A DNA stretch of 64,000 bases from Dokdonella fugitiva. Lineage in GTDB: Bacteria > Pseudomonadota > Gammaproteobacteria > Xanthomonadales > Rhodanobacteraceae. Numbering within the stretch: position 1 is the stretch's first letter; each line of letters opens with the position of its first letter. Below the pieces are notes generated by a model. The model was given only the letters and a program-made list of their open reading frames with translations. It was not told where the DNA came from and searched no databases. The translations under genes and the position numbers were made by a program. The stretch spans positions 62,001 through 126,000 of the forward strand of contig NZ_JACGXL010000002.1 of the NCBI RefSeq assembly GCF_014138265.1, in the 5' to 3' direction. This document shows positions 1 through 27,781 of this stretch, piece by piece.

Positions 1-657
1 TGGCGCAGTGGCCAGCGCCTGATCCTGCTGCTGACCCTGCCGTGCGCGGTGCTGCTGGTCGGGCTCGCCAAGCCGATCGTGGTCGTGCTGCTCGAACACG
101 GCCGCTTCGACGACCGCTCGACCGCGCTGACCGTGGAAGCGATGAGCATCCTCGCGATCGGCATGGTGTTCCGCTCGCAGGCGTACTTCAGCTACCGGGT
201 GCTGCACAGCATGATCCGGCCGTGGACACAGGTCTTCATCGGGCTCGCCGGCGTCGCGACCTGCGTCGGCCTCAACCTCGCCTGGGCGCAGCGCCTCGGC
301 CTGCGCGGCGTCGCGCTGTCCGCGGTGCTGTCGCAGTTGCAGTCGGCACTGATCGCCGCGCTCGTCGTGCGCCGCTTGCTGCGCGCGGACGCATCCGCGC
401 CGCGGGCGCTGTCGACGCCGGTGCTGCTGCCGGTCGGCGTGCTCGCCGCCGGCGTGCTGCTCGCGCGCCTGCTCGTGCCCGCCGGCCTCTACGAAGCAAG
501 CCATCGCCTGTGGGCGCTCGCCTGCGGGTTCGCCGCGGTGCCGGCCGGGCTTGCCGCGTTCGCGCTCGCCTGGCGCCTCGGCCTGCCCGAAGCGGTGGAC
601 CTCGTCGCGAAGCTGCGCAGCCGCCTCGCGCGCCCGCGGCGCCTGCGCGAACCGTGA
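1..657 (+). CDS. MurJ/MviN-like flippase, C-terminal part (5' truncated by window edge)
   Basis: The reading frame is open from the first base and gives the last 218 residues of an integral membrane protein. It has several hydrophobic helices and a stretch around residues 30-60 (GRFDDRSTALTVEAM, then IGMVFRSQAYFSYRVL) resembling the second half of MurJ/MviN flippases of the MOP superfamily. These proteins flip undecaprenyl-linked lipid II or polysaccharide units across the inner membrane. The tail is rich in arginine, as expected for a cytoplasmic end. It could be the housekeeping MurJ or a flippase of a polysaccharide locus; the missing N-terminus prevents a choice. No terminator hairpin follows directly. 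Confidence 0.7.
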   Translation, partial: WRSGQRLILLLTLPCAVLLVGLAKPIVVVLLEHGRFDDRSTALTVEAMSILAIGMVFRSQAYFSYRVLHSMIRPWTQVFIGLAGVATCVGLNLAWAQRLGLRGVALSAVLSQLQSALIAALVVRRLLRADASAPRALSTPVLLPVGVLAAGVLLARLLVPAGLYEASHRLWALACGFAAVPAGLAAFALAWRLGLPEAVDLVAKLRSRLARPRRLREP

Positions 658-9550: not shown

Positions 9551-10543
9551 TCACGCCGCGCGTGCGGCGAGCGTGCGTTCCCACGCGAGCGCGGTGCGCG
9601 CGATGAGGTCGAGGTCGTCGTGGCGCGGCGCCCAGCCGAGCACGTCGCGGATGCGCCGCGCGTCGGCGACGAGCGCGGGAATGTCGCCGTCGCGCCGCGG
9701 CTGCTCGACCACGCGCAACGGCGCGCCGCTCGCGCGCTCGACCGCGGCGATCACCTCGCGCACCGAGTAGCCGTGGCCGTAGCCGCAGTTGAGCGTCGTC
9801 GACGCGCCGCCGTCGCCGAGGTAATCGAGCGCACGCAGGTGCGCGTCGGCGAGGTCCTCGACGTGGATGAAATCGCGGATGCCGGTGCCGTCCGGCGTCG
9901 CGTAGTCGGTGCCGAAGATCGCGAGCGCGTCGCGCCGACCGGTGGCGACTTCGCAGGCGACCTTGAACAGCAGCGTCGAGCCGCGCGTCGACAGCCCGAT
10001 GCGACCGAGCGGGTCGCAGCCGGCGACGTTGAAGTAGCGCAGGATCACGTGGCGCATGCTGCCGTTCGCGTCGAGGTCGCGCAGCATCCATTCGCTCATG
10101 AGCTTGGAACTGCCGTACGGGCTGATCGGCCGGGTCGGCGTGTCCTCGCCCGCGCGACCGTCGGCGGTCGGTCCGTACACGGCGGCGGTCGAGGAGAACA
10201 CGACGCGACGCACGCCGCGGCGCACGCAGGCCTCGAGCAGGTTGCGCGTCGCGCAGGTGTTGTTCGCGTAGTAGCGCAGCGGGTCGGCGACCGATTCCGG
10301 CACGATCGTGCGCGCGGCGAAGTGCAGCACCGCGCCGACGTCGTGTTCGCGCAAGAGCGCATCGACGAGCGCCGCGTCGGCGGTGTTGCCGACGACGAGT
10401 GGCGCATCGAGCACGGCCTCGCGGAAACCCGTGCTGAGGTCGTCGAGCACGACCACCGGCGTGCCGGCCTCGCGCAACTGGCGCACGACGTGGCTGCCGA
10501 TGTAGCCGGCGCCGCCGGTCACGAGGACGGTATTCGCACTCAC
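9551..10543 (-). CDS. galE: UDP-glucose 4-epimerase
   Basis: 330 residues, the usual GalE length. The N-terminal Rossmann motif VLVTGGAGYIGSHV is present, with FSSTAAVYG containing the catalytic Ser/Thr region, and YGSSKLMSEWMLRD giving the YxxxK pair. RDFIHVEDLADAHLRAL and the C-terminal sugar-binding part are present. The enzyme interconverts UDP-glucose and UDP-galactose in the cytoplasm. The start is a GTG at 10543 preceded by GAGGAG and overlapping the stop of the upstream gene as GTGA. It is the last gene of the minus-strand biosynthetic operon, so it may supply a UDP-sugar to that pathway rather than serve general metabolism. Confidence 0.93.
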   Translation of the reverse strand: MSANTVLVTGGAGYIGSHVVRQLREAGTPVVVLDDLSTGFREAVLDAPLVVGNTADAALVDALLREHDVGAVLHFAARTIVPESVADPLRYYANNTCATRNLLEACVRRGVRRVVFSSTAAVYGPTADGRAGEDTPTRPISPYGSSKLMSEWMLRDLDANGSMRHVILRYFNVAGCDPLGRIGLSTRGSTLLFKVACEVATGRRDALAIFGTDYATPDGTGIRDFIHVEDLADAHLRALDYLGDGGASTTLNCGYGHGYSVREVIAAVERASGAPLRVVEQPRRDGDIPALVADARRIRDVLGWAPRHDDLDLIARTALAWERTLAARAA

Positions 10544-12228
10544 GATGGCTCCTCGGTTCGGGTGGCGCGCATGCGCCGGCGCGGCACGAGCCGCTTGCCG
10601 TCGACGATCTCGATGCCGGTGCCGCGGCTGTAGGTGTGGCAGCCGCGCAGGCCGCGCCGCCAGTCCGGATCGATGCGGCCGAGCGGCCGTTCTTCGTAGC
10701 GCCCGGGCTCGAGCACGACGACTTCGTTGAAGACGACCGCGTAGCCATAGTCGACGCTGCAGTCCTGCGCGGGGCGGATCAGGCGGCCGTCGTGCACGAA
10801 CAGCTTGCCGGCCGGTCGCGCGCGGCGCACGTCGCTGAGCAATGGATTGGCCGGATGCGCGCGCCACGGCCCGAGCGGCGAATCGGCGACGAACAGGAAC
10901 AGGTCGGTCCATACGCGCCGGTCGACGTCGAGCGGACTTTCGCTGATGCAGGCGAACAGGTACCAGTGCGTGCCGTCGTGGTGCAGCGTGCCGTCGACCG
11001 CGTTGCGGCCGCGCAGCAGCTCGGCCGCGAATGCCCAGCGCGCGGGGAACTCGACCGCGCGATGCAGCGCGAACGTGTGCGCGGCCGACGACTCGACCGT
11101 GAGCCAGAGTTCGCCCTGCCACTCGTACACGAGCGGGTACGACAGGTGCCAGGGCTCGTCGAACACGGTGCGCACGTCGACCGGCGCGAGCGCGGCGTCG
11201 AGTTCGGCGACTGCGATGCGGCCACGCCGCGTCGCGTACGGATACTCCTCGACGAACAACCAGTCACGACCGTCGCGATGCACGAGCGAAGGATCGGCCC
11301 AGAAGCGCCCGGGCGGCGTGTCGAGCACGCGCAGGTCGTGCGCCCGCGGCCGGGCGGGGTCGAGGGGCACGTCGCTGCGGCGCGCGGCGAGCACCCAGTC
11401 TTCGCCGCGGCCGAGGCGCGGCACGTGCCGACGCAACGCGCGCGCGGCGAGGCGCAGCGCGAACGCGCCGAGCGCGAACGGCCCCGGTGGCGTGAACGCG
11501 GACGTCGCTTCGCCGACCGGCGTTTCGCCCGCGGCGAGCCGGCGCAGCAGGCGCACGAGCGTCGCCGGCACGCGCAACAACTGGTAGGCGCGGTTGCGTG
11601 CGAACGAGAGCTGCGCGGTCGCGCTCCAGTCGGCGCCGAGCAATCGCACGTCGCGACCGTCGTGGACGACGATGCCGCCGCGACTGACCGCCTCGCCGCG
11701 CCACAGCGGCGCGAGGTGGCGCAGGCCGTGGCGCCGCGCGTCGGTCGCGTCGCGCTCGAGGAACCAGGCGCCGCGCGTCGCGAGCGCGGCGATTCCGGCC
11801 GACGGCGGCGGGAGGCCGAAGCCGAGCAGCAGGTCGGCGCCGTACGCACGCAGCTGCAACGCGCCGCGTTCATCGAGCTCGAGGCGGCCGTCGTGCTCGC
11901 GCGCGCCGATCTCGAGCAGTGGCACGTCGACGAGGCGGTCGCGTAGTTCGACCGGCGCGGTCGCCTTGCGCGCGCCGCCGGCGAGCGCCGCGTCGACGCT
12001 TACGAACGCGTCGACCGCGCGAGGGCGCGACGGCGGCGACGGCAGCGGCGCGTGCAGCACCGCGAGCAGCTCGCAGCCGTCGTCGGCGACGAGCGCGGCG
12101 AGCGACTCGGCGATCCACGCCGGCACGACCACCCGATCGACGAAGGCGAGCACGCGCAGCGCGCGGCATCCGGGCGGCAACGGCGCATACAGCGGCGTCG
12201 GCGCGACGGCGTCGGCGCGCTGCGTCAT
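10540..12228 (-). CDS. GINT1-like / formyltransferase-like protein with five-bladed propeller
   Basis: 562 residues. Residues about 15-190 look like a degenerate formyl-transferase/Rossmann domain (GADLLLGFGLPPPSAGIAAL, then RHGLRHLAPLWRGE). The C-terminal 300 residues resemble the GH43/GH68-like five-bladed propeller found in glucosamine inositolphosphorylceramide transferase family proteins: PPGRFWADPSLV, WLFVEEYPY, EPWHLSYPLVYEWQGELWL and DGTLHHDGTHWYLFA. Bacterial members lie in polysaccharide and natural-product loci; their reaction is generally unknown. The start at 12228 overlaps the preceding stop as ATGA, and its own stop overlaps galE. Sugar transfer or N-acyl modification of the operon product is a guess from context. 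Confidence 0.7.
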   Translation of the reverse strand: MTQRADAVAPTPLYAPLPPGCRALRVLAFVDRVVVPAWIAESLAALVADDGCELLAVLHAPLPSPPSRPRAVDAFVSVDAALAGGARKATAPVELRDRLVDVPLLEIGAREHDGRLELDERGALQLRAYGADLLLGFGLPPPSAGIAALATRGAWFLERDATDARRHGLRHLAPLWRGEAVSRGGIVVHDGRDVRLLGADWSATAQLSFARNRAYQLLRVPATLVRLLRRLAAGETPVGEATSAFTPPGPFALGAFALRLAARALRRHVPRLGRGEDWVLAARRSDVPLDPARPRAHDLRVLDTPPGRFWADPSLVHRDGRDWLFVEEYPYATRRGRIAVAELDAALAPVDVRTVFDEPWHLSYPLVYEWQGELWLTVESSAAHTFALHRAVEFPARWAFAAELLRGRNAVDGTLHHDGTHWYLFACISESPLDVDRRVWTDLFLFVADSPLGPWRAHPANPLLSDVRRARPAGKLFVHDGRLIRPAQDCSVDYGYAVVFNEVVVLEPGRYEERPLGRIDPDWRRGLRGCHTYSRGTGIEIVDGKRLVPRRRMRATRTEEPS

Positions 12229-13007
12229 GCGAAGGCCCGACCCCAGTCGCCGATCGCCTGCAGCAACCGCGCACGATCCTGCACGCGCATGAACATGTGG
12301 TCGCAATCGGGCCAGTACTCGAAACGCACGCACGCGGCGGCGGTGGGTGCACCGAATGTCGCCGCGAACTGCGCGCGATGCGTGAAGTACGCGGCCGCGC
12401 CGCCGGTGTAGAGCGCGAACACGCCGACTTCGCGCGCGACGAGGCGGCCGAGTTCGACGCGCGCGGCGGCGAGCGCAGGCCAGTCGCGCATGTTGCCGTC
12501 GCCGATCGCGGGCGCGCGCTTGCGACGCGTGAAGCGACCGAGCAGCGTCTTCAGCGCCGACGCGCCACGGCCGAGCAGGAGCTGCAGCTGGCCGACGCGG
12601 AACCACGCGCCACGGTGCGCGTACGGGTCGAGCAGGAGCAGTCCGCACACGCGCTCGTCGGCGAGTGCGATCTTCCAGCCCTGGTCGGCGGCGCTGCACA
12701 GGCCACCGATGACGAAGCGGTCCGCGCCGACCAGCGCACCGAGCCGGTCGAAGCCGCGCATGATCACCGCGACATCGTCGCCACGCTTGGGCGGCGCGTC
12801 GCCGACGCCGGGCTGGTCGACGCGCAGCACGGCGAAGCCCTGCGCGGCGAGCGCGCGCGCGAGGTCGACGTGCATGCGGAACGGACCCGAGCGCGGGATG
12901 AAGCCTGCGTTGAGCAGCACCCACAGCGGCCGCCGCGTCGGTTGCGCGGGACGCGTGAGCACGCCGGTGAGGCCGTGGCCGAGGTCGAGCGGGGCTTCCT
13001 CGATCAT
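12225..13007 (-). CDS. alpha/beta-hydrolase with Cys at the nucleophile elbow (hydrolase-1 like)
   Basis: 260 residues with a full alpha/beta-hydrolase outline: LLNAGFIPRSGPFRM near the N-terminus (oxyanion region), VLRVDQPGVGD, the nucleophile elbow FVIGGLCSAADQGW with Cys instead of Ser, and a C-terminal WPDCDHMFMR supplying the likely catalytic His. The pattern resembles the hydrolase called exosortase A system-associated hydrolase 1, also with a GLC elbow, but no exosortase is visible here. RBS GAGGAA precedes the ATG at 13007. Overlaps with both neighbours are 4 nt. Possible roles are release of the chain from the last PCP or removal of misprimed acyl groups. Confidence 0.75.
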   Translation of the reverse strand: MIEEAPLDLGHGLTGVLTRPAQPTRRPLWVLLNAGFIPRSGPFRMHVDLARALAAQGFAVLRVDQPGVGDAPPKRGDDVAVIMRGFDRLGALVGADRFVIGGLCSAADQGWKIALADERVCGLLLLDPYAHRGAWFRVGQLQLLLGRGASALKTLLGRFTRRKRAPAIGDGNMRDWPALAAARVELGRLVAREVGVFALYTGGAAAYFTHRAQFAATFGAPTAAACVRFEYWPDCDHMFMRVQDRARLLQAIGDWGRAFA

Positions 13008-13846
13008 TTCGCTTCCTCGCCCGGTGCCGCCTGCGCGAGCGCATCGATGCAGGCCGCGACCGGCGGCGTGATGAAGGTCGCGCGCAGGTCGATGCGCGCA
13101 TGCCAGCCGGCCGCCGCAGCCGGCAGGGCGACGTGCTGGCGCGCCTGCGGCAGCGGCGCGGCGCGCTCGTCGTCGACGACGCGCAGGTCGAGCGCGGCAT
13201 CGGCCGAGCGCGCCTCCGCGAGCAGTCCGTCGAGGCTCTGCGCGGCGATCTGCGCGCGCAACGACGCGGGACAGTACGACGCGAGCAGGCGATCCGCCTC
13301 GGCCGGTTTCGGCTGCGTGCCGATGAACGGGTAGCGCAGGCGCGAGGCGCGCTCGCGCGCATCCATCGCGACGAGTTCGTCGAGCCACGCACGGCCGTCG
13401 GTGAGCGGCTGCCACAGCCACAGCGGCAGGCGATGGCGTTGCGCGAGCCGTGCCGCGGGCCACGCGCCCGCGCGCGCGCCGAATGCGATCAGCGGCACCC
13501 CCGGCACGCGGCGCGCGAGTTCGTCGAGCGCGGTCCCGGCATCGGCGAACACGCCGTCGAGGGTGAACGCCGTCTCGTCGCCCCACGAATCGCCGCTGCC
13601 GTAGTAGTCGAAGCGCAGGCTCGCGATGCCGCGTTCGGCCAGGCGCGCCGCGACCAGCGACAGCAGGCGGTAACTGAGGAACTGTTCGTGGAAGAACGGC
13701 GGACAGAGCACGAACGCCGCGCGCGCCGGGCCGCGCGCGGCACGGAACACCGTGAACAGGCGCCGATCCGGCGCGCCCGCGAACGCGAATTCGTGCAAGG
13801 CTTCGCCGGCGCGCTCCGGCGCCGGCGGCGCGATCGTCGCCGTCAT
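13004..13846 (-). CDS. alpha/beta-hydrolase-like protein lacking the Ser nucleophile (hydrolase-2 like)
   Basis: 280 residues. Conserved early blocks FVLCPPFFHEQFLSYRLLS and SLRFDYYGSGDSWGD match alpha/beta-hydrolases near polysaccharide and PEP-CTERM/exosortase A loci (hydrolase-2 type). At the elbow the sequence reads AFGARAGAW, with Arg where Ser or Cys is expected. No clear C-terminal catalytic His is seen. It may therefore be non-catalytic or act as a partner of the adjacent Cys-type hydrolase. The start at 13846 is fixed by the ATGA overlap with the synthase stop, and its end overlaps the next gene in the same way. Confidence 0.7.
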   Translation of the reverse strand: MTATIAPPAPERAGEALHEFAFAGAPDRRLFTVFRAARGPARAAFVLCPPFFHEQFLSYRLLSLVAARLAERGIASLRFDYYGSGDSWGDETAFTLDGVFADAGTALDELARRVPGVPLIAFGARAGAWPAARLAQRHRLPLWLWQPLTDGRAWLDELVAMDARERASRLRYPFIGTQPKPAEADRLLASYCPASLRAQIAAQSLDGLLAEARSADAALDLRVVDDERAAPLPQARQHVALPAAAAGWHARIDLRATFITPPVAACIDALAQAAPGEEAK

Positions 13847-16800
13847 CCGCCGCGCCCGCCGAACAGTCCGCGCAGGCGCGACATCCAGCCGCCCTGCTTC
13901 GCCGTGCGTTCGCGCGGCAACATCTCGGCGACGCTGCCGAGCGTGCCGGTGGCGATCGCGAGCACGTTGAGGCGCACGCCGGCTTCGCGCTCGACGCGCG
14001 CCATCATGTCGACCGCGAGCAGCGAATCGCCGCCGAGGTCGAAGAAGTTGTCGTCGGCGCGTGCCTCGGCGACGCCGATGAGCTCGCACCAGAGCGCGGC
14101 GAGATAGGTGATGCGCGCGTCGGCCGGCGCGGCCACGGCGTCGTCCACGTGGCCACCCTGCTCGGGCGGCATCGGCAGCGCCTTGCGATCGGTCTTGCCG
14201 TTCGGCGTGGTCGGCATCGTCTCGAGCACGACGATGTGGTTCGGCCGCATGTACGGCGGCAGCGATTCGCGCAGGCGCTCGCGCACGCGGCCGGCGAGGT
14301 CGCCGTAGCGATCGCGCGAGGTCACGTAGAGCACGAGGCGCTGGTCGCGCGGGCCGAACTCGCGCACCGCCGCCGCGGCCTCGCGCACGAGCGGATCCTC
14401 GTGCGCGGCCGCCTCGATGTCGCCGAGTTCGATGCGGAAGCCGCGCAGCTTGACCTGGTCGTCGGCGCGGCCGTGGAAGTACAGCACGCCGTCCTGCAGG
14501 CTGCCGACGTCGCCGGTGCGGTACATGCGGCTGCCGTCGCCGGCGAACGCGTCGACGCGGAAGCGCTCGGCGGTGAGGTCGGGGCGATGCAGGTAGCCGT
14601 CGGCGACGCCGTCGCCGCCGATCCAGATCTCGCCCTGCTCGCCGGCGGCGAGCACGCGTCCCGATTCGTCGAGCACGTGGATGCGCGTGTTGGCGATCGG
14701 CCGGCCGAGCGGCACCGGCCCGTCGCCGGCCTCGACGCGGTGGATCGTCGACCAGATCGTCGTCTCGGTCGGCCCGTACATGTTCCACAGCTCGCCGCAG
14801 TGGCGCACGACTTCGTTGGCGAGGTCGCGCGGCATCGCTTCACCGCCGACGAGCAGCTTGAGGCCGGCGAGGCCTTCGACGCGGCCGCCGTCGCAGAGCA
14901 GGCGCAGCAGGGTCGGCGTCGTCTGCAGCACGGTCGCGCCGCAGTCCTTCACCAGCGCCATCGTCTTCTGCGGATCGCGCACTTGCGCCTCGGTCGCGAT
15001 GTGCACGCGTGCGCCGCTCACGAGCGGCAGGTACAGCTCCAGGCCGGCGATGTCGAACGACAGCGTGGTCACCGCGCAGATCACGTCGTCCGCGGCGAAG
15101 CCGGGTTCCTCGCGCATCGAGCGCAGGAAGTTGACGAGGTTGCGGTGCAGGATGCGCACGCCCTTCGGCTCGCCGGTCGAGCCGGAGGTGAACAGCACGT
15201 ATGCGAGGTCGGCGCCGCCGACCGCGGGCAACGACGCGACGTCGTCGTCGCCGACCGCGGGCAACGGCGCGACGTCGGCGTCGTCGACCGCGATCAGCGC
15301 GGCGTCGTGTTCGGTCACCGCTGCCGGAAGCTCGTGGCCGGCGAGCACCACCGTGTGGCGCAACGCCGAGCGCTCGATCATCGTGCGCAGGCGCTTGTCC
15401 GGGAAGCTCGCGTCGAGCGGCACGTAGGCGGCGCCCGCGCGCAGCACGCCGAGCGCCGCGGCGACCATCTCGCTGCGCCTGGGCATGCAGATGCCTACGA
15501 GGTCGCCGCACGAGACGCCGGCGGCGAGCAGGCGCGAGGCGACGCGCCCGCTCGCGCGCCACAGGTCGGTGTAGCGGTACTGCTGCGTTTCGCAGCTGAC
15601 CGCGATGCGGCCGGGTGTCGCGTGCACCTGCTCCTCGACGAGGTCGAGCAGCGAGGGACCGGATGCGACGGCGTGGAGCGGCGGCGTCATCGGCGGGGCC
15701 GTGGCGGCCGCGGTCGCGGCCGTGCGTGACGATGCAGCGGCCGCATGATCGGAAGTTTGCATGCCGATGTCCTCGAGCATTCGTTCGTACGCGGCGATCC
15801 AGCGCCGTATCGTCGCCGCGTCGTACAGCGCGGTGCGGTAGTGCAGGTCGAGCGAGAGCTGGCGCCCGTCGTCGTTGAGGTTGAAGAACAGGTCCCACAG
15901 CAGCGCGACGTGGCGGCAGTCGCGCCATTCGGTCACGACGCCGTCGAACTGCGGCGCGCGCACGCGCGGGTTGAGGTTGAAGATGACCTCGCCGAGCGCC
16001 CCGCGCACGCTGCGCCGGCGCAGCGAGCGCGCGCGCAGGATCGTCATGAGCGTGAGGTCCTGGTGGTCGGCCGCGTCGAGCAGCGCGGCCTGCGCGGTCG
16101 ACACCGCGGCGTCGACGCCCGCGCGCGGATCGATGCGCAGGCGCAGCGGCAGCGTGTTGACGCCGTCGCCGATCAGCGCGCCGCTGCCGGCGAGCGCCTG
16201 GCCCGCGAACGGTATCGCGATCGCGAAATCGCGCTGCGCCGCCAGCCGCGCGACGAACAGGCCGAACGCGCCGAGCAGCAGGCCGTAGAGCGTCGCGCCG
16301 CGACGGCGTGCTTCGGCACGCAGCGCGGCGGCGAGCGGCGCCGGGAACACGTGCCGCTCGGTGTCGGCGTCGAAGTCGGCGCCTTCCACGTGCGGGCGGT
16401 CGCCCGGGAGTTCGAGCGGCGCCGGGATGTCGGCGTAGACGCGGTTCCAGTAGGCCAGCTGCGCGGCACCGTTGGCGTCGCGGCGCGCACGCTCGGCGAG
16501 CGCGTACGCGCGGAAGCTTTGCGGCGGCGGCAGGCGCGGCTCGCGACCGCCCGCGTACGCGTTGTAGCAGGCCTGCAGTTCGTCGCAGAACACCGCGAGC
16601 GACCAGCCGTCCATGATCAGGTGGTGCGCGACCAGGTGCAGCGCATGGCGATGCTCGCCGAGTCGCAGCAGGGCGAACCGCGCCAGCGGCGCCCGCGCGA
16701 GGTCGAACGGCGTGCGCATCTGCCGATCGCACCAGGCCTCGAGCCGCTCGTCCGCGTCGGCGCCGGACAGGTCGACCTGCTGCAGCGGCAACGACGGCAG

Positions 16801-19800
16801 CGGCTGCAGCGCGAGCGTGCGGCCGTCGGCGGCGATGCCGAAGCGGAACGCCTCGTGGCGGTGCCAGACCGTGTCGAGCGCGCGCTGCAGCGCGGCGACG
16901 TCGAGCGCGCCGTCGAACGTGAGCACGACCGCTTCGTTGCAGGCGAGCGCGGCGCTCGAGCCGTACTGGCAGCCGAGCCACTTCTCGAGCTGGCCGTCGG
17001 TCAGCGCGACCGCGTCGGGCAATGCCGCCTCGTCGTTCGTGTTCGTCGCGGCCACGCTCGCGCGTGCGCCCGCGCGCGGCACCAGCAGACCCGCACCGAG
17101 CAGGCCGTCGAGCGCCGCGCGCACCGCGCCGACGATGCGTTCGACTTCCGCGGCGCCGTGCGCCTCGGTGAGGAAGCAGTTGAACTGCTCGTACACGTGC
17201 AGGCCGTTCGCGCGCAGCATGTACCAGAACAGGCTCGCGTACGGCTGGTCCTCGTCGGCGACGATGCGCCAGAGCGAGCTGAAGCCGACCGCCTTGAGCG
17301 GCGCCGCGCGTTCGCCGAACAGCGCATCGAGGCGCCCGACGAGGTCGTGCGTGCGCGCATTGAGTTCGTCCTGCAGCGCCGGGCCGCGCTGGCGCAGGTG
17401 CATCAACGCGGCCTTCGCCGCGGCGAGCGCGAGCGGGTGGCGCACGAACGTGCCGGCGAAGTACGTGACGCCCGCCTCCGGACGCGAATCGTCGCCGAAG
17501 CGCCAGTCGCCGCCGTCGAGCGCGTCGAGCCAGCGCGCGCCGCCGGCGATCGCGGCGAACGGCAGGCCGCCGCCGATGATCTTGCCGTAGGTCGCGATGT
17601 CGGCGCGCACGCCGTAGTACGCCTGCGCACCGCCTTGCGCGATGCGGAAGCCGGTGATGACTTCGTCGAAGATCAGCGCACAGCCGGCCTCGTCGCAGAT
17701 CGTGCGCAGCACCTGCACGAACGCGCGCGGCTGCAACGACGGGTTCTTGCCCTGCACCGGCTCGATCATGATCGCGGCGAGTTCGTGCGCGCGCTCGCGC
17801 AGCACGCGCAGTGCGTCCTCGCTGCCGTAGTCGAGCACGAGCACGTTCTCGACCGCGCTGGCGAGGATGCCCGGTGCCGCGGCGATCGAACGCAGGCTGC
17901 GCGTGCCGCGCACGATCACTTCGTCGAAGATGCCGTGGTAGGAGTTGGTGAAGATCGCGATCGTGCGGCGGCCGGTCACCGTGCGCGCGATGCGCATCGC
18001 GCCCATCACGGCCTCGGAGCCGGTGTTGCAGAACGCGACGCGCGGCATGCCGGTCATGCCGGCGATAAGTTCGGCGACCTCGGCGGTCAACGGATGCTGC
18101 GGGCCGACTTCGAAGCCGGCGTCGACCTGCTGCTTGATCGCCGTGGCGACGTAGTCGGGCTGGTGGCCGAGGAAGTTCGCGCCGAACGAATTGAGGCAAT
18201 CGACGTACTCGTTGCCGTCGACGTCGTGCAGCAGCGCACCCTTCGAGCGCTCGACGACGATCGGGTAGACGAGTTCCTTCCACAGCGGATGGAAGCCGGT
18301 GACGACGCGCGGATCGGCCATGCGCGCGCGGTGCTGCTGCGCGAACGCCTTCGAGCGCGCGGTGCGCGCGTTGTAGCGACGCGTGAAGTCGTCGACCCAG
18401 GCGCGCTGCGCGGGCGTCATCGCGTGATCGGGCTCGAGCGTGATGCGTGCGGACGCGCCGAACGGCCGCTCGACGAGGTTCGCCGCGGGCGCTTCTTCCG
18501 CGCGCGGCGCGGCGGCGGGCGGCGCTGCCGGCGGCCCGGCGACCGGCGCGGCGCCGCCGGCGAGGCTCGCGAGCAGTTGCATCTGCTGCTGCATGAGCGC
18601 CTGCTGGCTCTGGATCAGCGCGAGCAGCGGTGATGCCGAGGCCGCGGTCGCCGGCATGGCGACTGCAGATGCTGCCGGCGCGGGGATCGGCGGCGCCGAC
18701 GACGCGGGCAGCGTCGGTTCGAGCAGGGTTGCAAGCTTGGCGATGCTGTCGACGTCCTCCATGAGGCGCCGGAACTTCAGCTTGAGCCCGTAGCGGCGCT
18801 CGAGTTCGAGCGCGGCCTGCGTCAGCGACAGCGAATCGAGTCCGAGCTCGAGGAAGCTCGCCTCGTCGTGCGTCGCGCCGAGGTGCTCGCCGGTCAGCGA
18901 CTCGACCAGTTCGCGCAACTCGGCACGCAGGCGCGACGACGGCGGCGGAACGGCCGGCGTGGCGGCGATCGCGGGATGGGCTTCCTTCATGCTCGCTTCC
19001 CCAGGGACGCCGGCGGCCGGCGTCGGTGCATCGATCCAGTGGCGCTCGCCGCGGAACGGATAGCCCGGCAGCGCGACGCGGCGGCGCGCCTGCCCGGCGT
19101 AGTACGCATTCCAGTCGGGCTCGCGGCCGGCGACCCAGCACGCGCCGAGCGCGGCGGCGAGATGTTCCGCGTCGCTGCCCGGCTTCGCCGCCGGGCCGAG
19201 TGAAGCGACCGCGCGGCCACCCTCGCCGAGCTGGCTGCGCGCGAACGTCGTCAGCGCCTGCGACGGCCCGACTTCGACGAACAACGTCGCGCCGTCGGCG
19301 ACCGCGTGCGCGACCGCGTCGGCGAAACGCACCGGTTCGCGCAGCTGGCGGCACCAGTAGGCCGGTTCCGCCGCGGCGAGCGCGTCGATCGGCGCGCCGC
19401 TCACGCACGAATAGAACGGTCGCGACGATGGCGCGAGGCGCAGGTTCGCGAACGCACGCTCGAACGGCGGCAGCGCGCCGTCCATGAGCGCCGAATGGAA
19501 CGCGTGGCTCACCTTGAGCCGCGTGCTCGCGATGCGCTCGGCCTCGAGCGTGTCGGCGAACGCACCGATCTCGGTGTCGGTGCCGGCCACGACGCACAGC
19601 TCCGGCGCGTTGACCGCGGCGAGGCTGACGCCGCCGTTGAGGCGCGGCGCGATCGCATTGGCGACCGCGCGCACCGCGAGCATCGCGCCCGGCGGCTGCG
19701 CCTGCATCGCCGCGCCACGCGCGCAGACCAGTGCGATCGCGTCGTCGAGGCCGAACACGCCGGCAAGCGTCGCGGCGACGTACTCGCCGATGCTGTGGCC

Positions 19801-21656
19801 GATCATCGTGTCGGCGACGATGCCCCAGCTCTCCCACAGGCGCGCGAGCGCGTACTCGACGACGAACAGCGCCGGCTGCGTGAAGCGCGTTTGGGCGAGT
19901 TCGGCCGCGGCCGCTTCCGCGGCGTCGGCGGACGGCAGGATCAGTGCGCGCAGGTCGCGCCCGAGCCACGCGCTCGCGAGCGCGCAACCGCGGTCGAAGT
20001 GCTCGGCGAACACGGCTTCGGTCTCGACGAGCTCGCGCGCCATGTTCGCGTGCTGCGAGCCTTGTCCGGGAAACAGGAACACGAGCTTCGGCCGCGCCGC
20101 GCGTCGGGCCACGACCTGGGCGAGCGCGTCGCGCGCTTGCGCCGTCGTGCGCGCGACGACCGTCGCGCGCGAGGCCATCGCCTTGCGGCCGAGCGCGAGC
20201 GTCGCCGCGACGTCGGGCAACTCCTCGTCGCGCGCGTGCTCGAGCCGCGCGGCGAGTTCCGCCGCGCGGCGCTGCAACGCGTCGTCGTCGCGCGCCGACA
20301 GCACGAGCACGCTCGCGCGACGACCGACTGCTGACGGCGGAGCGAGCGGCGCCTCCTCGAGCACGACGTGCGCATTGGTGCCGCCGACGCCGAACGAACT
20401 CACGCCTGCGCGCCGCGGCGTCGCGCCGCGCGGCCACTCGACCGGCTCGCGCGCGAGCTTGAAGGGCGAATGCGCGAAGTCGATCTCGGGATTCGGCGCA
20501 CGCAGGTTGATGCTCGGTGGAATGCGCCCGTGCCGCAGCGCGAGGGTCGCCTTGATCAGGCCGGCGACGCCCGACGCGGCGACGAGGTGGCCGAGGTTGC
20601 CCTTGATCGAGCCGAGCCAGCACGCCTGCGTCGCGCTGCCGTCGACGCGGAACGCGCGCGTGAGCGCCTCGACCTCGATCGGATCGCCGAGCGGCGTGCC
20701 AGTGCCGTGCGCCTCGACGTAACCGATCGAACCGGCGTCGACGTTCGCGCTGGCGAGCGCGAGGCGGATCGCGGCGGCCTGGCCGCGCACGCTCGGCGCG
20801 CCGAAGCTCGCCTTGTCGGCGCCGTCGTTGTTGACGCCGACGCCGCGGATCACCGCGTGGATCGTGTCGCCCTGCTCGATCGCATCGGCGAGGCGCTTGA
20901 GCACGACCACGCCGGCGCCGGACGAGAACACGGTCCCGCTCGCGTCGGCGTCGAACGGCCGGCAGTGGCCGTCGGCGGATTCGATCGCGCCTTCGGCGGG
21001 CAGGTAGCCCGATTCCTGCGGCACGACCACGTTGACGCCACCGGCGAGCGCGACGTCGCACTGCCAGCTCATGAGCGCGTACCACGCCTGCGCCACCGCG
21101 ACGAGCGAGGTCGAGCACGCGGTGTACAGGCTGATCGCGGGGCCGGTCAGGCCGAGCCGGTGCGCGACGCGCGTCGCGAGGTAGTCCTTCTCGTTGGCGA
21201 GCATCGCGGCGAACTCGCCGCTCGCCGCGACGACGTCGGGGCGCGCGTCCACGAGCTTGCGGTAGCCGTTGTTCGACGTGCCGGCGAATACACCGATGGA
21301 GGCAGCGTCGCTGCCGCCGGCACAGCGCGACGGATCGATGCCGGCGTGCTCGAGCGCGTTCCAGCACAGTTCGAGGAACACGCGCTGCTGCGGGTCGATC
21401 AGCTGCGCCTCGCGTGCGGGGATGCCGAAGAACGCGGCGTCGAACCGGTCGGCGTCGGCGAGCGTGCCGCGCGCGCGCACGTAACGCGGGTGCTCGCGCA
21501 GTTCGCGCGGCACCAGCGGCGAGAGTTCTTCCGGGGCGAAGCGGGTGATCGATTCGCGCCCGGCGAGCAGGTTCGCCCACAGCTCGTCGATCGAGGCTGC
21601 ACCAGGGAACCGCCCCGCCATGCCGACGATCGCGATGCCGTCGTGCGCGACCTCGC

Positions 21657-21660
<4 letters not shown>
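13843..21660 (-). CDS. hybrid PKS-NRPS: KS-AT-ACP-aminotransferase-C-A-PCP
   Basis: 2605 residues. In order: KS (about 6-430; TACSTS near 181, VEAHGTGTPLGD, IKGNLGHL); AT (about 520-830; GHSIGEY near 622, HAFH near 718 pointing to malonyl-CoA); ACP (about 905-980; LGLDSLSL near 942); Ala/Pro/Gln linker; class III PLP aminotransferase (about 1080-1530; YGKIIGGG Lys near 1358); condensation domain (about 1550-1965; HHLIMDG near 1682); adenylation domain (about 2000-2500; FTSGSTGEPKG near 2161); PCP (about 2515-2580; GGDSLL near 2545). There is no KR, DH, ER or TE. Residues lining the A pocket read by alignment to PheA are D-I-L-Q-L-G-M-I-W, close to the glycine code. The KS-AT-ACP-AMT-C-A-PCP order resembles the beta-amino-acid section of mycosubtilin/iturin synthases. 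The start at 21660 overlaps the A-PCP gene stop (ATGA). Confidence 0.92.
15217..15282. repeat. 33-bp tandem duplication inside the adenylation domain
   Basis: Two adjacent 33-bp units (15217-15249 and 15250-15282) differ at only 2 positions. They encode two successive copies of a D-D-V-A-(P/S)-L-P-A-V-G type segment just before the A3 core. The copy number could vary without breaking frame. The segment lies in a surface loop that is variable among adenylation domains. Confidence 0.8.
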
Positions 21661-23500
<1,840 letters not shown>

Positions 23501-23504
<4 letters not shown>

Positions 23505-24442
23505 CGCGCGCCCCAGGCGGTGTCGCGGTTCGCGCCGCCGAGTTCCTGCAGCGCGATCAGCGGCCCGACCGCGCGCAGCCAGAGGCCGAGCGCGAGCGCC
23601 TTGAGCGGCTTGCCGTTGCGCCGGCGCTCGTCGACGGCGTCGCCGATGAACGCGCTCCAGTTGTCCGGTCCGAGCGAGTCGAACGCGACCGAGATCGTCA
23701 TGTTGAGGCTGCGCGCGGTGTGCCACCAGCCGCACGGCAGGAACAAGGTCTCGCCCGCGTGCACCACGACCTTCTGGCACTTCGCCTCGCGGAACAGCGG
23801 GTAGCGTTCGTAGTCGGGATGGTGGTGGTCGCGGATGCTCGACTGCCACGGCATGTCCGGATTGACGTAGAGCAGCTGTTCCTGCCCCGGCGCGTACAGG
23901 GTGAATTCCTTGTCGCCGTGGAGCTGGGTGATCCACGCGTGCAGGCGCAGCACGTCGTAGTGCAGGTACGGGAACTCGCCGCCGGGACCGCCGAAGAAGA
24001 TCTCGAGGTTGTTGACGCCGGAGAACAGCCGCTGCGGCACGAGCGGATTCGCCTGCCGGTCGGGCAGGCTGTAGCCGAAGCGCGGCGTGACCTCGGGCAG
24101 CAGCTCGCGGAACGTCTTGGCGATCTCGAACTTGCACGGATACGGGCCGGGCTTGTCGATCGTCGACGCCTCGAGCAGGTCGATGAGTTCGGCGAGGCGG
24201 TAGTCGTGGCCGCGCACGCGCACGACGTGCGTGCCGTAGGCGCGCCGGAAGTAGTCCGGATCCGCGCGACCGTACAGCGGCCACGCGCGCGCGGCGTCGC
24301 CGAGCACGACCGGCTTGCGCGGATCGCGGTATTCGGCGATGAAATCGTCGACGCTGAGCCCACTGCGGCGATCGACCCAGCTGCTGCTGCCGGCGTTGCC
24401 GGCGGTTACGACGCCGGCAACGCCGGCTTGCGTCGTGTTCAT
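23501..24442 (-). CDS. JmjC/cupin_8-type Fe(II)/2-oxoglutarate oxygenase (copy 2)
   Basis: 313 residues. The double-stranded beta-helix carries the facial triad: His-Tyr-Asp in FPYLHYDVLRLHAW near residue 159 and His in PCGWWHTARS near 240. A Lys in GDKEFTLYAPG may bind 2-oxoglutarate. Family members hydroxylate proteins or PCP-bound and free amino acids, so beta- or ring-hydroxylation of a pathway intermediate is plausible. It is a tandem paralogue of the upstream gene (shared WVDR, FPYLHYD, GDKEFTLY and ANRR/ANRD-WG end). The start at 24442 is preceded by GGGAGGGG; a start five codons earlier is less likely. The stop overlaps the A-PCP start as ATGA. Confidence 0.82.
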
Positions 24443-24487
24443 GCTCGCCCCTCCCATGCTGCGGCCGGCGCTGCGCCGGCGATTCGA

Positions 24488-25420
24488 TCAGTGCAGGCGC
24501 GCCATACCCCAGTCCGCGCGGCGATTCGCGCCGCAGCGTTCGGCGAGCGTCAGCATCGGCCCGAGCAGGCCGAGATACAAGCCCAGCCAGCGTGCGCGCG
24601 CGGCGTGGCCCTTGCGGTGTTCCTCGGCGACGACGTCGCGCACGAACTCGCGCCAGTTGCTCGATTCGAGCTGGTCGAACGCGACCGTGATGTTCATCGT
24701 GAGGCAGCGCGCGGTGTGCCAGGTGCCGCACGGGATGAACAGCGCGTCGCCGGCGCGCAGCACGACGCGGTGCCGGCGCGCCTGCTGCAGCAGTGGCCAG
24801 CGTCGCGCGTCGTGCAGGTCGTCGACGCGCGACATCCACGGCATCTCCGGGTGCACGTACAGCAGGTGCTCCTGGCCACGCTCGTACAACGTGAATTCCT
24901 TGTCGCCGTGCACCTGCGCGATCCACGCGTGCATGCGCAGCATGTCGTAGTGCAGGTACGGGAATTCGCCGCCCGGCCCGCCGAAGAAGATCTCAAGGTG
25001 GTTGACGAGGTCGAACACCGACTTCGGCATGAACGGGCTCGTGTGCCGGTTCGGCAGGCTGCACGGGAACCGCGGGGTGACGTCGGCCATGAGATCGGCG
25101 CAGTCGGCGAACGTGCACGGGTACGGCGCGGGTTGCGCCTCGCTCGACGCCTGTTGCAGCGCGATCACCTCGCCGAGGCGGTAGTGCCGGCCGCGAATGC
25201 GCACCGGACGGTCGGCATAGCGTTCGAGGAAGAACGCCGGCGTGAACCGGTCCGGCGCGCTCCATTGCTCGAGCGCGCTGCGCAGCACGACCGGGCGGCG
25301 CGGCTCGAGGTAGCGCGCGCGGAAATCGGCGGGGTCGAGCGTGTCGACCCGGTCGACCCACGTCGCGGCATCGACCTTCGCCGGCGCGTCCACCGCCACT
25401 GACCCTGCCCCGATCGTCAT
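24488..25420 (-). CDS. JmjC/cupin_8-type Fe(II)/2-oxoglutarate oxygenase (copy 1)
   Basis: 310 residues; first gene of the biosynthetic operon. The metal-binding set is His-Tyr-Asp in FPYLHYDMLRMHAW near residue 156 and His in PCGTWHTARC near 234. The order WVDR ... YPCTF ... NHLEIFFGGPGGEFPYLHYD ... GDKEFTLYERG is shared with the paralogue downstream, 45 bp away. Expected reaction: Fe(II)- and 2-oxoglutarate-dependent hydroxylation, substrate unknown. The start at 25420 gives an N-terminus equal in length to the paralogue; a GTG at 25501 would add 27 residues of low-complexity character. The long leader (about 110 nt from the predicted start point) could carry regulation. Confidence 0.8.
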   Translation of the reverse strand: MTIGAGSVAVDAPAKVDAATWVDRVDTLDPADFRARYLEPRRPVVLRSALEQWSAPDRFTPAFFLERYADRPVRIRGRHYRLGEVIALQQASSEAQPAPYPCTFADCADLMADVTPRFPCSLPNRHTSPFMPKSVFDLVNHLEIFFGGPGGEFPYLHYDMLRMHAWIAQVHGDKEFTLYERGQEHLLYVHPEMPWMSRVDDLHDARRWPLLQQARRHRVVLRAGDALFIPCGTWHTARCLTMNITVAFDQLESSNWREFVRDVVAEEHRKGHAARARWLGLYLGLLGPMLTLAERCGANRRADWGMARLH

Positions 25421-25523
25421 GAATCCGTCCCTTGCGATGCGCGTGTCGGGCCAGCCGGGTGCCGTTCGTCCGGCCCGGCGGCTGGCCTGCGCGCCGGTCA
25501 CGCCACTCTTTCGACCCCGGAAA

Positions 25524-25539
25524 GGTGACGCAGTTCACA
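25524..25539. promoter_or_regulatory. near-consensus CRP/Clp palindrome at the operon promoter
   Basis: The sequence GGTGA-CGCAGT-TCACA matches the CRP-type consensus TGTGA-N6-TCACA at 9 of 10 defined positions. It abuts a TAAAAT hexamer on the minus strand (25544-25539), a good -10 for the biosynthetic operon. The site would thus sit at the transcription start and fit repression. The divergent J-domain gene has TAGAAT at 25619-25624, about 90-100 bp away, a distance at which CRP-type activators can also act. Confidence 0.5.
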
Positions 25540-25544
25540 TTTTA
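25539..25544 (-). promoter_or_regulatory. -10 box (TAAAAT) of the biosynthetic operon
   Basis: TAAAAT read on the minus strand is the only good -10 hexamer in the 283-bp divergent gap 25421-25703. It implies a leader of about 110 nt before the start codon at 25420. No good -35 hexamer is found at the usual spacing. The CRP-like palindrome overlaps its downstream edge. Confidence 0.4.
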
Positions 25545-25703
25545 GCGCCGGACCGCCAATCTAAGCGAGGCACGCCCTGGTGCGCCAGTGGGGGCCGGTC
25601 GGCCCGCGCGGCAACAGGTAGAATCGCGCTGCGCCCGTTCGGGGAACGGGGTCCGCGCCCCGTGTCGGCCGGACCGGACCGGGCAGACCGTTCGGGGGCA
25701 AGC

Positions 25704-26380: not shown

Positions 26381-27781
26381 TCAGCGCGCGCCGCGGCCGA
26401 ACAGCACGACCTCGACCGTCTGCACGAGGATCGTGAGGTCGAACAGCAGGTCGTGGTTCTTCACGTAGAACAGGTCGTACTTGAGCTTCTCGACCGCGTC
26501 GTCGACCGAAGCGCCGTACGGGTAGCGCAGCTGCGCCCAGCCGGCGAGGCCGGGTTTCACGCAGTGGCGCAGGTTGTAGTAGCGGATCTGCCGCGCGAGG
26601 TCGGCGACGATCTGCGGGCGCTCGGGCCGCGGCCCGATCACGCTCATGTCGCCACGCAGGATGTTCCACAGCTGCGGCAGTTCGTCCAGGCGCGTGCGGC
26701 GGATGAAGCGGCCGACGCGCGTGACGCGATCGTCGTCGCGCGTCGCCCAGCGGGCGACGCCGTCGCGCTCGGCGTCGGTGCGCATGCTGCGGAATTTCGC
26801 CAGTGCGAACACATGGCCGTGCTCGCCGACGCGTTCCTGCCGGTACAGGATCGGCTGGCCGGCGCCGGATTCGAGCCGGATCGCGAGCGCGACGAGCAGC
26901 ATGAACGGCCACGCGAACACGAGCACGACCAGCGCGATCGACACGTCGAACACGCGCTTGATCGCGTGGCGCAGCGGCGAATTGTCGAAGCCGTGCGAGA
27001 ACACGAGCCACGACGGCTCGACCAGCGACAGCTTGACGATGCCCAGTTCGCGCTCGAAGAACGAGGCGAGGTTGCTGACCGCGATGCCGGCCTGCTTGCA
27101 GTCGAGCAGCTCGTCCATCGGCAGCCCGCGGCGGCGATCGTCGGGGCCGACCACGATCTCGTTGACCTGCAGCTGCTCGGCGAACGCGCGCAGGCTGCCC
27201 TCGACCGCGAGCAGCCGCTCTTCCGGCACGCACACGGTTTCCTCGCCCATGCGCACGTAGCCGAGGATGATGAAGCCGCGCCGGTCGGTGCGCCGGCGCA
27301 TGCGCTGCGGGATCGTCGCCGCGTGGGTGCCCGCTCCGAGCACGAGCACGCGCCGCTTGAGCGATTCGATGTCGACGAGGCGCGCGATCAGCACGCGCCA
27401 GCCCTGCACCGCGGCGAACCCGAGCACGAGCGCGATCGCGAACACGCCGCGGCCGATCTCCGTCGCCGGGAACAGGTAGTAGATCGTGATGAGACCGACC
27501 ACGCCCAGAGCGAAACCGACCAGCTGGCGCGCGAACAGGCCGAACCAGCTCTCGCGCAGGTGCTGCTGGTAGAGCCCGAGCGCGGACATGCCGAGCACGA
27601 GCACGACCGCGAACAGCAGCGCGCGCGGCCACAGGTGCCCGGCGAAGCCGGCCAGTGCCGGCGCATCGGCGAAATAGCGCAGGTGCGCCGCGAGCTGCAC
27701 GCCGAGCGTGAGCGACGCGAGTTCGAGCAGCACCAGCAGGGTGAGCCAGCGTATCGACTGTCGCCGCAGCGCCCGCAACAT
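26381..27781 (-). CDS. undecaprenyl-phosphate glycosyl-1-phosphate transferase (WcaJ/EpsE type)
   Basis: 466 residues. Four to five transmembrane helices in the first 140 residues are followed by a Rossmann-like region (VLVLGAGTHAATI). A further helix leads into the bacterial sugar transferase domain (KRVFDVSIALVVL, KFRSMRTDAERDG, RRTRLDELPQLWNIL, MSVIGPRPERP). The enzyme transfers a sugar-1-phosphate to undecaprenyl phosphate at the inner membrane, the first step of an exopolysaccharide or O-unit. The arrangement resembles sugar transferases of PEP-CTERM/EpsH1-associated systems. RBS GGAGACGAG before the ATG at 27781 decides the start over the upstream frame. No other glycosyltransferases are adjacent, so the full polysaccharide locus must be elsewhere. 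Confidence 0.88.
   Translation of the reverse strand: MLRALRRQSIRWLTLLVLLELASLTLGVQLAAHLRYFADAPALAGFAGHLWPRALLFAVVLVLGMSALGLYQQHLRESWFGLFARQLVGFALGVVGLITIYYLFPATEIGRGVFAIALVLGFAAVQGWRVLIARLVDIESLKRRVLVLGAGTHAATIPQRMRRRTDRRGFIILGYVRMGEETVCVPEERLLAVEGSLRAFAEQLQVNEIVVGPDDRRRGLPMDELLDCKQAGIAVSNLASFFERELGIVKLSLVEPSWLVFSHGFDNSPLRHAIKRVFDVSIALVVLVFAWPFMLLVALAIRLESGAGQPILYRQERVGEHGHVFALAKFRSMRTDAERDGVARWATRDDDRVTRVGRFIRRTRLDELPQLWNILRGDMSVIGPRPERPQIVADLARQIRYYNLRHCVKPGLAGWAQLRYPYGASVDDAVEKLKYDLFYVKNHDLLFDLTILVQTVEVVLFGRGAR

What the first reader, a model, noticed from the sequence alone, without database searches (positions are those of the whole stretch)
9551..25420. Possibly undescribed hybrid NRPS-PKS operon with seven consecutive 4-nt gene overlaps
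Eight minus-strand genes run JmjC oxygenase, JmjC oxygenase, A-PCP, KS-AT-ACP-AMT-C-A-PCP, hydrolase, hydrolase, GINT1-like, galE. From the second oxygenase onward each stop overlaps the next start as ATGA (five times) or GTGA (galE), so translation is probably coupled and the products work together. I know of no characterised pathway with this gene set. Seen: gene order, overlaps, domains. Inferred: one pathway making a small modified aminoacyl-polyketide.
Basis: partly seen in the sequence, partly recalled or inferred. Interest (0 to 1): 0.85.

Follow-up and report, generated by a model that had tools for sequence, protein, structure and literature searches.

The report
Peptide assembly line in exopolysaccharide locus
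The eight genes are real: they encode enzymes predicted to build a small proline-malonate-glycine unit, they sit inside a gene locus for making a sticky outer polysaccharide in Dokdonella and relatives, and they probably make an unusual decoration for that polysaccharide rather than a free drug-like molecule.

Summary
The operon is real; its domains and order hold, but the 4-nt overlaps number six, not seven. The host is a Dokdonella. The motifs looked for are intact; A-domain codes read proline (g3) and glycine (g4), AT looks malonyl-type, an embedded aminotransferase would make a beta-amine, and g4 has no thioesterase.

Of 97 family genomes, all 41 with this PKS-aminotransferase region carry the XrtA chain-length protein, against 11 of the other 56; in 35 of 41 both lie on one contig, 11-91 kb apart, in 6 on different contigs. 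The hydrolase pair tracks the assembly line: 40 of 41 versus 2 of 56. The exception, G035, has built-in thioesterases. "Hydrolase 1" has an invariant Cys nucleophile, "hydrolase 2" Arg there.

Best reading: an NRPS-PKS builds an acyl-peptide that the hydrolase pair moves from carrier protein onto EPS. Linkage is shown; chemistry and attachment are inferred. No listing from ten paper searches pointed to such a system.

The parts
24488..25420 (-). g1: Cupin_8/JmjC-type oxygenase (310 aa), presumably Fe(II)/2-oxoglutarate dependent; HYD at residue 157, distal His at 235
23501..24442 (-). g2: second Cupin_8/JmjC-type oxygenase (313 aa), about 50% identical to g1; best solved relatives are JMJD5/KDM8
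21657..23504 (-). g3: A-PCP loading module (615 aa); specificity code DVQFVAHVVK (proline-like)
13843..21660 (-). g4: KS-AT-ACP-AMT-C-A-PCP (2605 aa); HAFH (malonyl-type) motif in AT, A code DILQLGMIWK (glycine-like), no thioesterase domain found
13004..13846 (-). g5: relative of exosortase-A-associated hydrolase 2 (TIGR03101, below cut-off); Arg125 where the nucleophile should be
12225..13007 (-). g6: relative of exosortase-A-associated hydrolase 1 (TIGR03100, below cut-off); alpha/beta-hydrolase model with Cys104 at the nucleophile elbow and conserved D236-H237
10540..12228 (-). g7: N-terminal alpha/beta domain plus C-terminal GH43-like beta-propeller (PF24793); relatives in two genomes are fused to a GT2 glycosyltransferase
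9551..10543 (-). g8: UDP-glucose 4-epimerase GalE (TIGR01179 over cut-off)
26381..27781 (-). EPS sugar transferase, TIGR03013 XrtA/PEP-CTERM type, over cut-off
1..657 (+). end of a gene whose D. fugitiva counterpart is a MurJ-like flippase (C2 62001-62657); the EPS set continues outside the window on contig C2 43494-62000: TIGR03027 and TIGR03007 and TviB over cut-off, TIGR03018- and TIGR03016-like below cut-off, deacetylase PF01522, GT2, GT4s, Asn-synthase-like protein, Wzy_C protein
25421..25703 (.). intergenic region between g1 and the divergent DnaJ-domain gene (25704-26372 +); likely place of the operon promoter, although no sigma-70-like site was found

Best explanation
The operon is the acyl-peptide branch of an exosortase-less XrtA-type EPS locus. 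g3 loads proline; one or both JmjC oxygenases (g1, g2) hydroxylate a carrier-bound intermediate; g4 adds one malonyl unit, its aminotransferase turns the beta-ketone into a beta-amine, and it condenses glycine, giving about 3-amino-3-(pyrrolidin-2-yl)propanoyl-glycyl-S-PCP with hydroxyl(s). With no thioesterase in g4, a pair formed by g6 (Cys nucleophile) and g5 (Arg in its place, presumably non-catalytic) takes the acyl group off the last PCP and transfers it to a sugar of the EPS repeat unit, plausibly an amine freed by the locus's deacetylase. g7 and galE act on the sugar side. Shown: genes, domains, motifs, linkage, co-occurrence. Inferred: substrates, hydroxylation, pairing and transferase role, the acceptor and covalent attachment.
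For: Linkage: 41 of 41 AMT-positive genomes have TIGR03007 against 11 of 56 AMT-negative; in 35 of the 41 both are on one contig, 10.9-91.3 kb apart, convergent in 34 of those 35; in 6 they are on different contigs; 0 of 20000 within-genus permutations reach the 41. The PKS stop overlaps an EPS GT2 gene start by 4 nt in Dyella lutea and Lysobacterales 15-68-25. hyd1 in 40 of 41 AMT-positive and 2 of 56 AMT-negative genomes; of those two, G025 has a KS-AT-ACP-C-A-PCP protein and G094 an 83-aa carrier protein near it. The only AMT-positive genome without hyd1, G035, has PF00975 thioesterases in its line. Cys in 14 of 14 and Arg in 14 of 14 aligned members; Cys in 8 of 8 and Arg in 6 of 6 detected relatives from other families; both in one open frame in two genomes. 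Elsewhere a carrier protein lies within 6 kb of the pair in 7 of 7 loci tested, one of the seven below Pfam's cut-off. Three EPS loci without the PKS (G037, G015, G041) also lack the pair and Cupin_8 genes. Proline-like code in 11 of 11 clusters of this gene order. A-PCP is fused to the PKS in two relatives. The own-genome locus has a polysaccharide deacetylase.
Against: No chemistry or EPS structure is at hand. g5 and g6 score far below the TIGR03101/TIGR03100 cut-offs. No dedicated sugar N-acyltransferase was identified; the pair could simply hydrolyse. In the window's own genome the EPS machinery is on the opposite strand, about 31 kb from the AMT region, so it is not one transcript. Assembly lines vary: several end in a C-PCP module in which no A domain was found, and three last A-domain codes are unreadable. 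G061 has a serine-like code in place of glycine. No Cupin_8 gene was found in 2 of 24 AMT-positive loci (G061, G044). The thioesterase exception is a single genome, and G094 has both an A-PCP-thioesterase protein and a hydrolase pair. Of 8 PKS-AMT loci outside the family, 3 showed neither polysaccharide markers nor the pair, one of them at a contig end.
Confidence: 0.55

Rival explanations
1. A free small molecule (signal, metallophore or antibiotic): the operon makes a diffusible aminoacyl-polyketide, released by hydrolysis, and only shares regulation or genome position with the EPS locus.
For: Hybrid NRPS-PKS lines usually make free metabolites (recalled). Proline carrying a malonate-derived extension and ring hydroxylation is known from detoxin/rimosamide-like compounds (PMC12828459, passages). 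G035 and G094 have ordinary thioesterase domains.
Against: 41 of 41 co-occurrence, same contig in 35 of 41, holding within genera; 4-nt overlap with an EPS glycosyltransferase gene in two relatives; none of the eight genes matches a transporter family; different lines next to the same neighbour genes in congeneric species.
Confidence: 0.25
2. g5/g6 are proofreading (type II thioesterase-like) enzymes and release happens otherwise, for example spontaneous cyclisation or an unlinked acyltransferase.
For: Stand-alone alpha/beta hydrolases often accompany NRPS/PKS lines as editors (recalled); the fold of g6 is a generic alpha/beta hydrolase; G094 has a pair as well as a thioesterase-bearing protein.
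Against: Invariant Cys/Arg arrangement, both in one open frame in two genomes, carrier proteins near the pair in loci of other families, and absence of hyd1 in the one AMT-positive genome with integral thioesterases. The last rests on one genome.
Confidence: 0.2
3. The product modifies a lipid carrier or a surface protein made with the EPS rather than the sugar chain itself.
For: The PEP-CTERM/EpsH system couples EPS with protein sorting (PMC1569441, abstract); the acceptor is unknown.
Against: No exosortase match in any of the 41 AMT-positive genomes; g8, the deacetylase and the GT2 fused to g7 relatives act on sugars by family.
Confidence: 0.1

Closest known systems
Mycosubtilin/iturin MycA beta-aminating module
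   Same: ACP followed by an embedded class-III aminotransferase; the solved chains that cover g4's AMT region in the list are MycA (6kfm, 6kfu). That MycA makes a beta-amino fatty acid is recalled.
   Different: Starter here is a proline-like A-PCP, not a fatty acid; no thioesterase; located in an EPS locus.
Detoxin/rimosamide-like NRPS-PKS (e.g. pseudotetraivprolide)
   Same: Proline with a malonate-derived extension in a hybrid line, and ring hydroxylation (PMC12828459, passages only).
   Different: That line is described there as trans-AT with a thioesterase in PipC and its chemical synthesis passes through a beta-hydroxy ester; here AT is in cis, an aminotransferase is present, and no thioesterase was found.
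XrtA/PEP-CTERM (EpsH) EPS system with hydrolases 1 and 2 (TIGR03100/TIGR03101)
   Same: TIGR03013, TIGR03007 and TIGR03027 proteins, and a hydrolase pair together with carrier-protein chemistry.
   Different: No exosortase; hydrolases below the family cut-offs; an NRPS-PKS where other families' loci show a TIGR03098-like ligase (5 of 8) and a carrier protein, with a PLP decarboxylase identified in the one locus tested.
D-alanylation of teichoic acids (DltA/DltC)
   Same: Works alike in principle: an adenylating enzyme and a carrier protein activate an amino acid that ends on a cell-surface polymer (recalled).
   Different: Dlt uses one ligase, one carrier and MBOAT-type transfer (recalled); here a multimodular line and alpha/beta-hydrolase-type proteins.

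Membership tests
Hybrid NRPS-PKS with beta-aminating module | KS, AT, ACP, C and PCP active-site motifs intact | tested here: met
   TACST 180, EAHGTGT 316, NLGH 355, GHSIG 621, GLDSL 940, HHLIMDG 1679, GGDSL 2543
Hybrid NRPS-PKS with beta-aminating module | embedded class-III aminotransferase | tested here: met
   PF00202; solved relatives over this region are MycA chains; YGK motif at 1358
Hybrid NRPS-PKS with beta-aminating module | terminal thioesterase or reductase domain | tested here: not met
   no such Pfam match in g4; its C-terminal 206 aa hold only AMP-binding_C and PP-binding
XrtA/PEP-CTERM EPS locus | TIGR03013, TIGR03007 and TIGR03027 over cut-off | tested here: met
   window 26381-27781; L065 4736-6289, 369 of 278.85 bits; L065 4096-4719, 208 of 180 bits
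XrtA/PEP-CTERM EPS locus | exosortase (TIGR02602) | tested here: not met
   0 matches in own genome; in 4 of 97 family genomes and in none of the 41 AMT-positive ones
Exosortase-A hydrolases TIGR03100/TIGR03101 | score over curated cut-off | tested here: not met
   g6 50.7 of 168.45 bits; g5 61.2 of 202.75 bits
Exosortase-A hydrolases TIGR03100/TIGR03101 | same elbow residues (Cys / Arg) as TIGR03100-type loci from other families | tested here: met
Detoxin/rimosamide-like | trans-AT KS module, integral thioesterase | tested here: not met
   AT present, thioesterase not found
Plant GINT1 | GT64 catalytic domain in addition to PF24793 | tested here: not met
   only PF24793 and a sub-threshold GH43 match; that GINT1 carries GT64 is recalled
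EPS N-acylation system | acyl unit found on the polysaccharide | not testable with these tools
   needs chemistry

The most novel reading that the evidence does not exclude
Many members of this Xanthomonadales family build peptide-polyketide substituents of their exopolysaccharide on exchangeable NRPS-PKS lines, unloaded by a two-part Cys/Arg alpha/beta-hydrolase acyltransferase. This gives a function to the orphan families exosortase-associated hydrolase 1 and 2 and makes the polysaccharide locus a hidden source of natural-product chemistry.
Probability: 0.5. Interest if true: 0.9.

Novelty: new variant of a known kind. Interest (0 to 1): 0.76.

Why it matters
NRPS-PKS clusters are routinely mined as sources of free metabolites. 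If these lines decorate a polysaccharide, their products would be missed by culture-extract metabolomics, and EPS chemistry in 41 of the 97 family genomes sampled would have to be read with assembly-line rules. It also gives a direct test for two families that NCBIfam labels only as hypothetical equivalogs, hydrolase 1 and 2.

Tried and rejected
Considered and rejected: (a) chance overlaps; (b) 'seven overlaps'; (c) a GINT1-type glycosyltransferase for g7 on its own, since the shared part is PF24793 and the model shows an alpha/beta domain plus a GH43-like propeller; (d) classical Ser hydrolases for g5/g6; (e) a genuine XrtA protein-sorting system, as no exosortase was found.

Led nowhere: promoter scan (no sigma-70-like site; 5 terminator-like sites, shuffle mean 5.0); an 803-aa protein next to the JmjC genes of Dyella (no match), a 577-aa and a 386-aa EPS-locus protein, window 8066-9547 and 900-2294: no family; fold search of g6 (generic alpha/beta hydrolases); a second PDB aligner was not available.

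Literature: ten paper searches. Searches returned 0 papers. For the others I read titles and abstract starts of the rows listed (20 of 28, 15 of 38, 6 of 23; all rows elsewhere); none pointed to an NRPS-PKS in an EPS locus, but the texts were not read, including PMC7293339, which holds all four terms. Opened: PMC9762135 (two passages), PMC12828459 (nine passages), PMC1569441 (term search without hits; abstract and outline). Subscription papers and preprints are not held. MIBiG and antiSMASH were not available.

Choices that affect counts: AMT-positive means at least 540 bits, set after seeing the gap to the next genome's best hit at 427 bits. Four genomes with only weaker hits (G051, G025, G039, G047) count as negative; counting them positive gives 42 of 45 with TIGR03007. 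Hydrolase alignments used 14 of 15 hyd1 hits (one left out by the length filter) and 14 of 14 hyd2 hits. Only hyd1, not hyd2, was surveyed over the 97 genomes. The seven AMT-negative loci include partial ones (G053 19.1 kb, G072 15.5 kb) and one with poor gene calls (G045). The carrier proteins were picked by me as small open frames near the pair in 7 of 8 loci (G234 not tested). Gene calls in fetched loci come from my own codon-usage script and some starts may be off; G061's PKS reading frame ends oddly.

Full report
WHAT IS THERE. Eight minus-strand genes run from 25420 to 9551. Boundaries read from the sequence give six consecutive 4-nt overlaps (g2/g3, g3/g4, g4/g5, g5/g6, g6/g7 as ATGA; g7/g8 as GTGA) and a 45-nt gap between g1 and g2. 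Pfam and NCBIfam give Cupin_8 (g1, g2), A-PCP (g3), KS-AT-ACP-AMT-C-A-PCP (g4), two alpha/beta hydrolases whose only NCBIfam matches are the exosortase-A-associated hydrolases 2 and 1, below cut-off (g5, g6), PF24793 (g7) and GalE (g8). Just upstream lie a divergent DnaJ-domain gene and, at 26381-27781, a TIGR03013 XrtA/PEP-CTERM sugar transferase over cut-off. The catalytic motifs looked for in g1-g4 are present, with HAFH (malonyl-type, recalled) in AT.

PREDICTED CHEMISTRY. Aligned to a GrsA ruler, g3 reads DVQFVAHVVK and the g4 A domain DILQLGMIWK. From recalled code tables these are proline- and glycine-like. The proline-like code recurs in 11 of 11 clusters with this gene order (window included), and the A domain after the aminotransferase is glycine-like in the same 11. 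Other A domains in the set read the recalled threonine code exactly. Solved chains covering the aminotransferase region are MycA of mycosubtilin synthase. A-PCP and PKS are one protein in Dyella lutea and Lysobacterales 15-68-25, which supports direct hand-over from g3 to the KS. The line should thus carry Pro-C2(beta-amino)-Gly; two oxygenases may hydroxylate it. These are predictions.

SETTING. A scan of genome contigs with g2 brought 12 loci, ten of them with g2 at 59-92% identity: Dokdonella, Rhodanobacter, Dyella and unnamed relatives. In these ten the g2, A-PCP, PKS order holds, and g1 is missing only in Dokdonella BIN16. A Silanimonas locus (g2 at 38%) has a variant line plus both hydrolases, one Cupin_8 gene and the g7-like gene. 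Wider stretches show that the core lies in an EPS locus. In Dyella lutea the order is TviB, epimerase, TIGR03013-like transferase, a lyase-looking protein (my reading, no family match), two JmjC proteins, the fused PKS, GT2, deacetylase, Wzy, Wzx-like, AMP ligase, GT4s, deacetylase; on the other strand the hydrolases, an outer-membrane barrel-looking protein (my reading), a TIGR03018-like kinase (below cut-off), TIGR03007 and TIGR03027. In Dyella lutea and Lysobacterales 15-68-25 the PKS stop overlaps the GT2 start by 4 nt. In the window's own genome the matching genes lie just past the window's low end, contig C2 43494-62000, on the opposite strand, and were scanned directly: TIGR03027, TIGR03007 and TviB over cut-off, TIGR03018- and TIGR03016-like below cut-off, a PF01522 deacetylase, GT2 and GT4 glycosyltransferases, a Wzy_C protein and an Asn-synthase-like protein. 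The operon is thus one arm of a locus of about 46 kb.

HOW GENERAL. In 97 genomes of the family (one per species), the AMT region of g4 matches at 540 bits or more in 41, and the XrtA chain-length protein TIGR03007 is over cut-off in 52; all 41 are among the 52. Fisher p is 1.8e-17; shuffling labels within genera never reached the observed overlap in 20000 trials. In six of the 41 the two genes lie on different contigs and their distance is unknown; in the other 35 they lie 10.9-91.3 kb apart and in 34 of 35 converge. Exosortase matches in 4 of 97, in none of the 41 and in 4 of the 11 EPS-positive genomes without the line. In 24 AMT-positive loci examined, window included, 22 have at least one Cupin_8 gene close by, against 0 of 7 AMT-negative EPS loci, some of them partial. 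Next to the same neighbours (TIGR03013 transferase, DnaJ-domain gene, GlmS-like gene; for the last) stands the proline-type line in three Dokdonella genomes (window, D. fugitiva, BIN16) and, in the opposite orientation relative to those neighbours, a valine-like line with two other Cupin_8 genes in a fourth, G096. This looks like exchange of cassettes, as in capsule loci.

THE HYDROLASE PAIR. A g6 search (E at most 1e-15) hits 40 of 41 AMT-positive and 2 of 56 AMT-negative genomes. The missing one, G035, is where thioesterase domains (PF00975) are built into the line; the C-termini of g4 and of four other lines tested have none. Of the two extra hits, G025 has a KS-AT-ACP-C-A-PCP protein in the same stretch as EPS genes, and G094 a carrier protein near the pair, though G094 also has an A-PCP-thioesterase protein. 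Residue 104 of g6 is Cys in 14 of 14 homologues, with D236-H237 also invariant; the same place in g5 homologues is Arg in 14 of 14. In 200 genomes across the phylum, 8 have a TIGR03100 match (6 over cut-off): Cys in 8 of 8, Arg in 6 of 6 detected partners, both in one open frame in 2 genomes, and a PP-binding protein within 6 kb in 7 of 7 loci tested, one below Pfam's cut-off. The g6 model (mean pLDDT 82) puts Cys104 at the classical nucleophile elbow. I infer a two-part enzyme that takes acyl groups off carrier proteins. Cys favours transfer over hydrolysis in some alpha/beta-hydrolase-fold transferases (recalled), hence the transferase reading.

g7 AND g8. g7 is found in 4 of the 11 related genomes searched and also near G061 and G096. 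Its model (pLDDT 88) has an alpha/beta N-domain and a propeller whose nearest solved folds are GH43 and related sugar enzymes; in two relatives it is fused to a GT2. With GalE it points to the sugar side. 'GINT1-like' should not be read as a glucosamine transferase.

OUTSIDE THE FAMILY. Of 398 phylum genomes, 8 from other families have the AMT region at E at most 1e-120. Within the stretch fetched, 4 (G440, G438, G472, G311) show polysaccharide-gene homologues, some of them weak; one (G351) has the hydrolase pair near the line but no EPS marker by these queries; 3 (G405, G164, G487) show neither, G487 over 19.6 kb only. The link may extend beyond the family but is not a rule for all such PKSs.

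VERDICT. The new point is that this is an EPS-locus assembly line with its own conserved unloading pair. Confidence: functional tie to EPS about 0.75; covalent decoration about 0.55; hydrolase pair as unloading enzyme about 0.6. Kinship inflates simple p-values, so the within-genus test is the better guide, and it too rests on one genome per species.

Noticed in passing
window 8066-9547 (+) and 900-2294 (+): Two paralogous secreted-looking proteins flank the operon region; no Pfam match; the family recurs beside the Dokdonella and Silanimonas EPS loci.
   Followed up: partly
window 6051-7046 (-): TrmB-type regulator (PF01978 over cut-off) downstream of the operon; a candidate regulator of the locus.
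   Followed up: no
window 25704-26372 (+): DnaJ-domain protein divergent from g1; a similar gene stands in several of the related EPS loci.
   Followed up: no
L007 2149-7847 and equivalents in L008, L009, L011: A second carrier-protein set (ACP, TIGR03098-like ligase, PrmC-like methyltransferase, NAD-synthase-like, Asn-synthase-like) beside the EPS loci of Rhodanobacter and others.
   Followed up: partly
L120 5777-11923: KS-AT-ACP-C-A-PCP without aminotransferase or thioesterase match in the EPS region of G025.
   Followed up: partly
L014 and its upstream stretch L050 (Silanimonas): Line begins with a bare carrier domain, no loading A domain found, and ends C-PCP.
   Followed up: no
L092-L093 (G044), L085-L086 (G096), L096-L097 (G103): Last A domains whose specificity code cannot be read; possibly degenerate or with another substrate.
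   Followed up: no
L010 6314-8725 and equivalents: An approximately 800-aa polysaccharide-lyase-looking protein (my reading, no Pfam or NCBIfam match) next to the JmjC genes or the sugar transferase in several loci.
   Followed up: partly
G045, G081, G088, G107: In the 97 genomes exosortase and the PKS-AMT line were never found together: 4 with exosortase, 41 with the line, 0 with both.
   Followed up: partly
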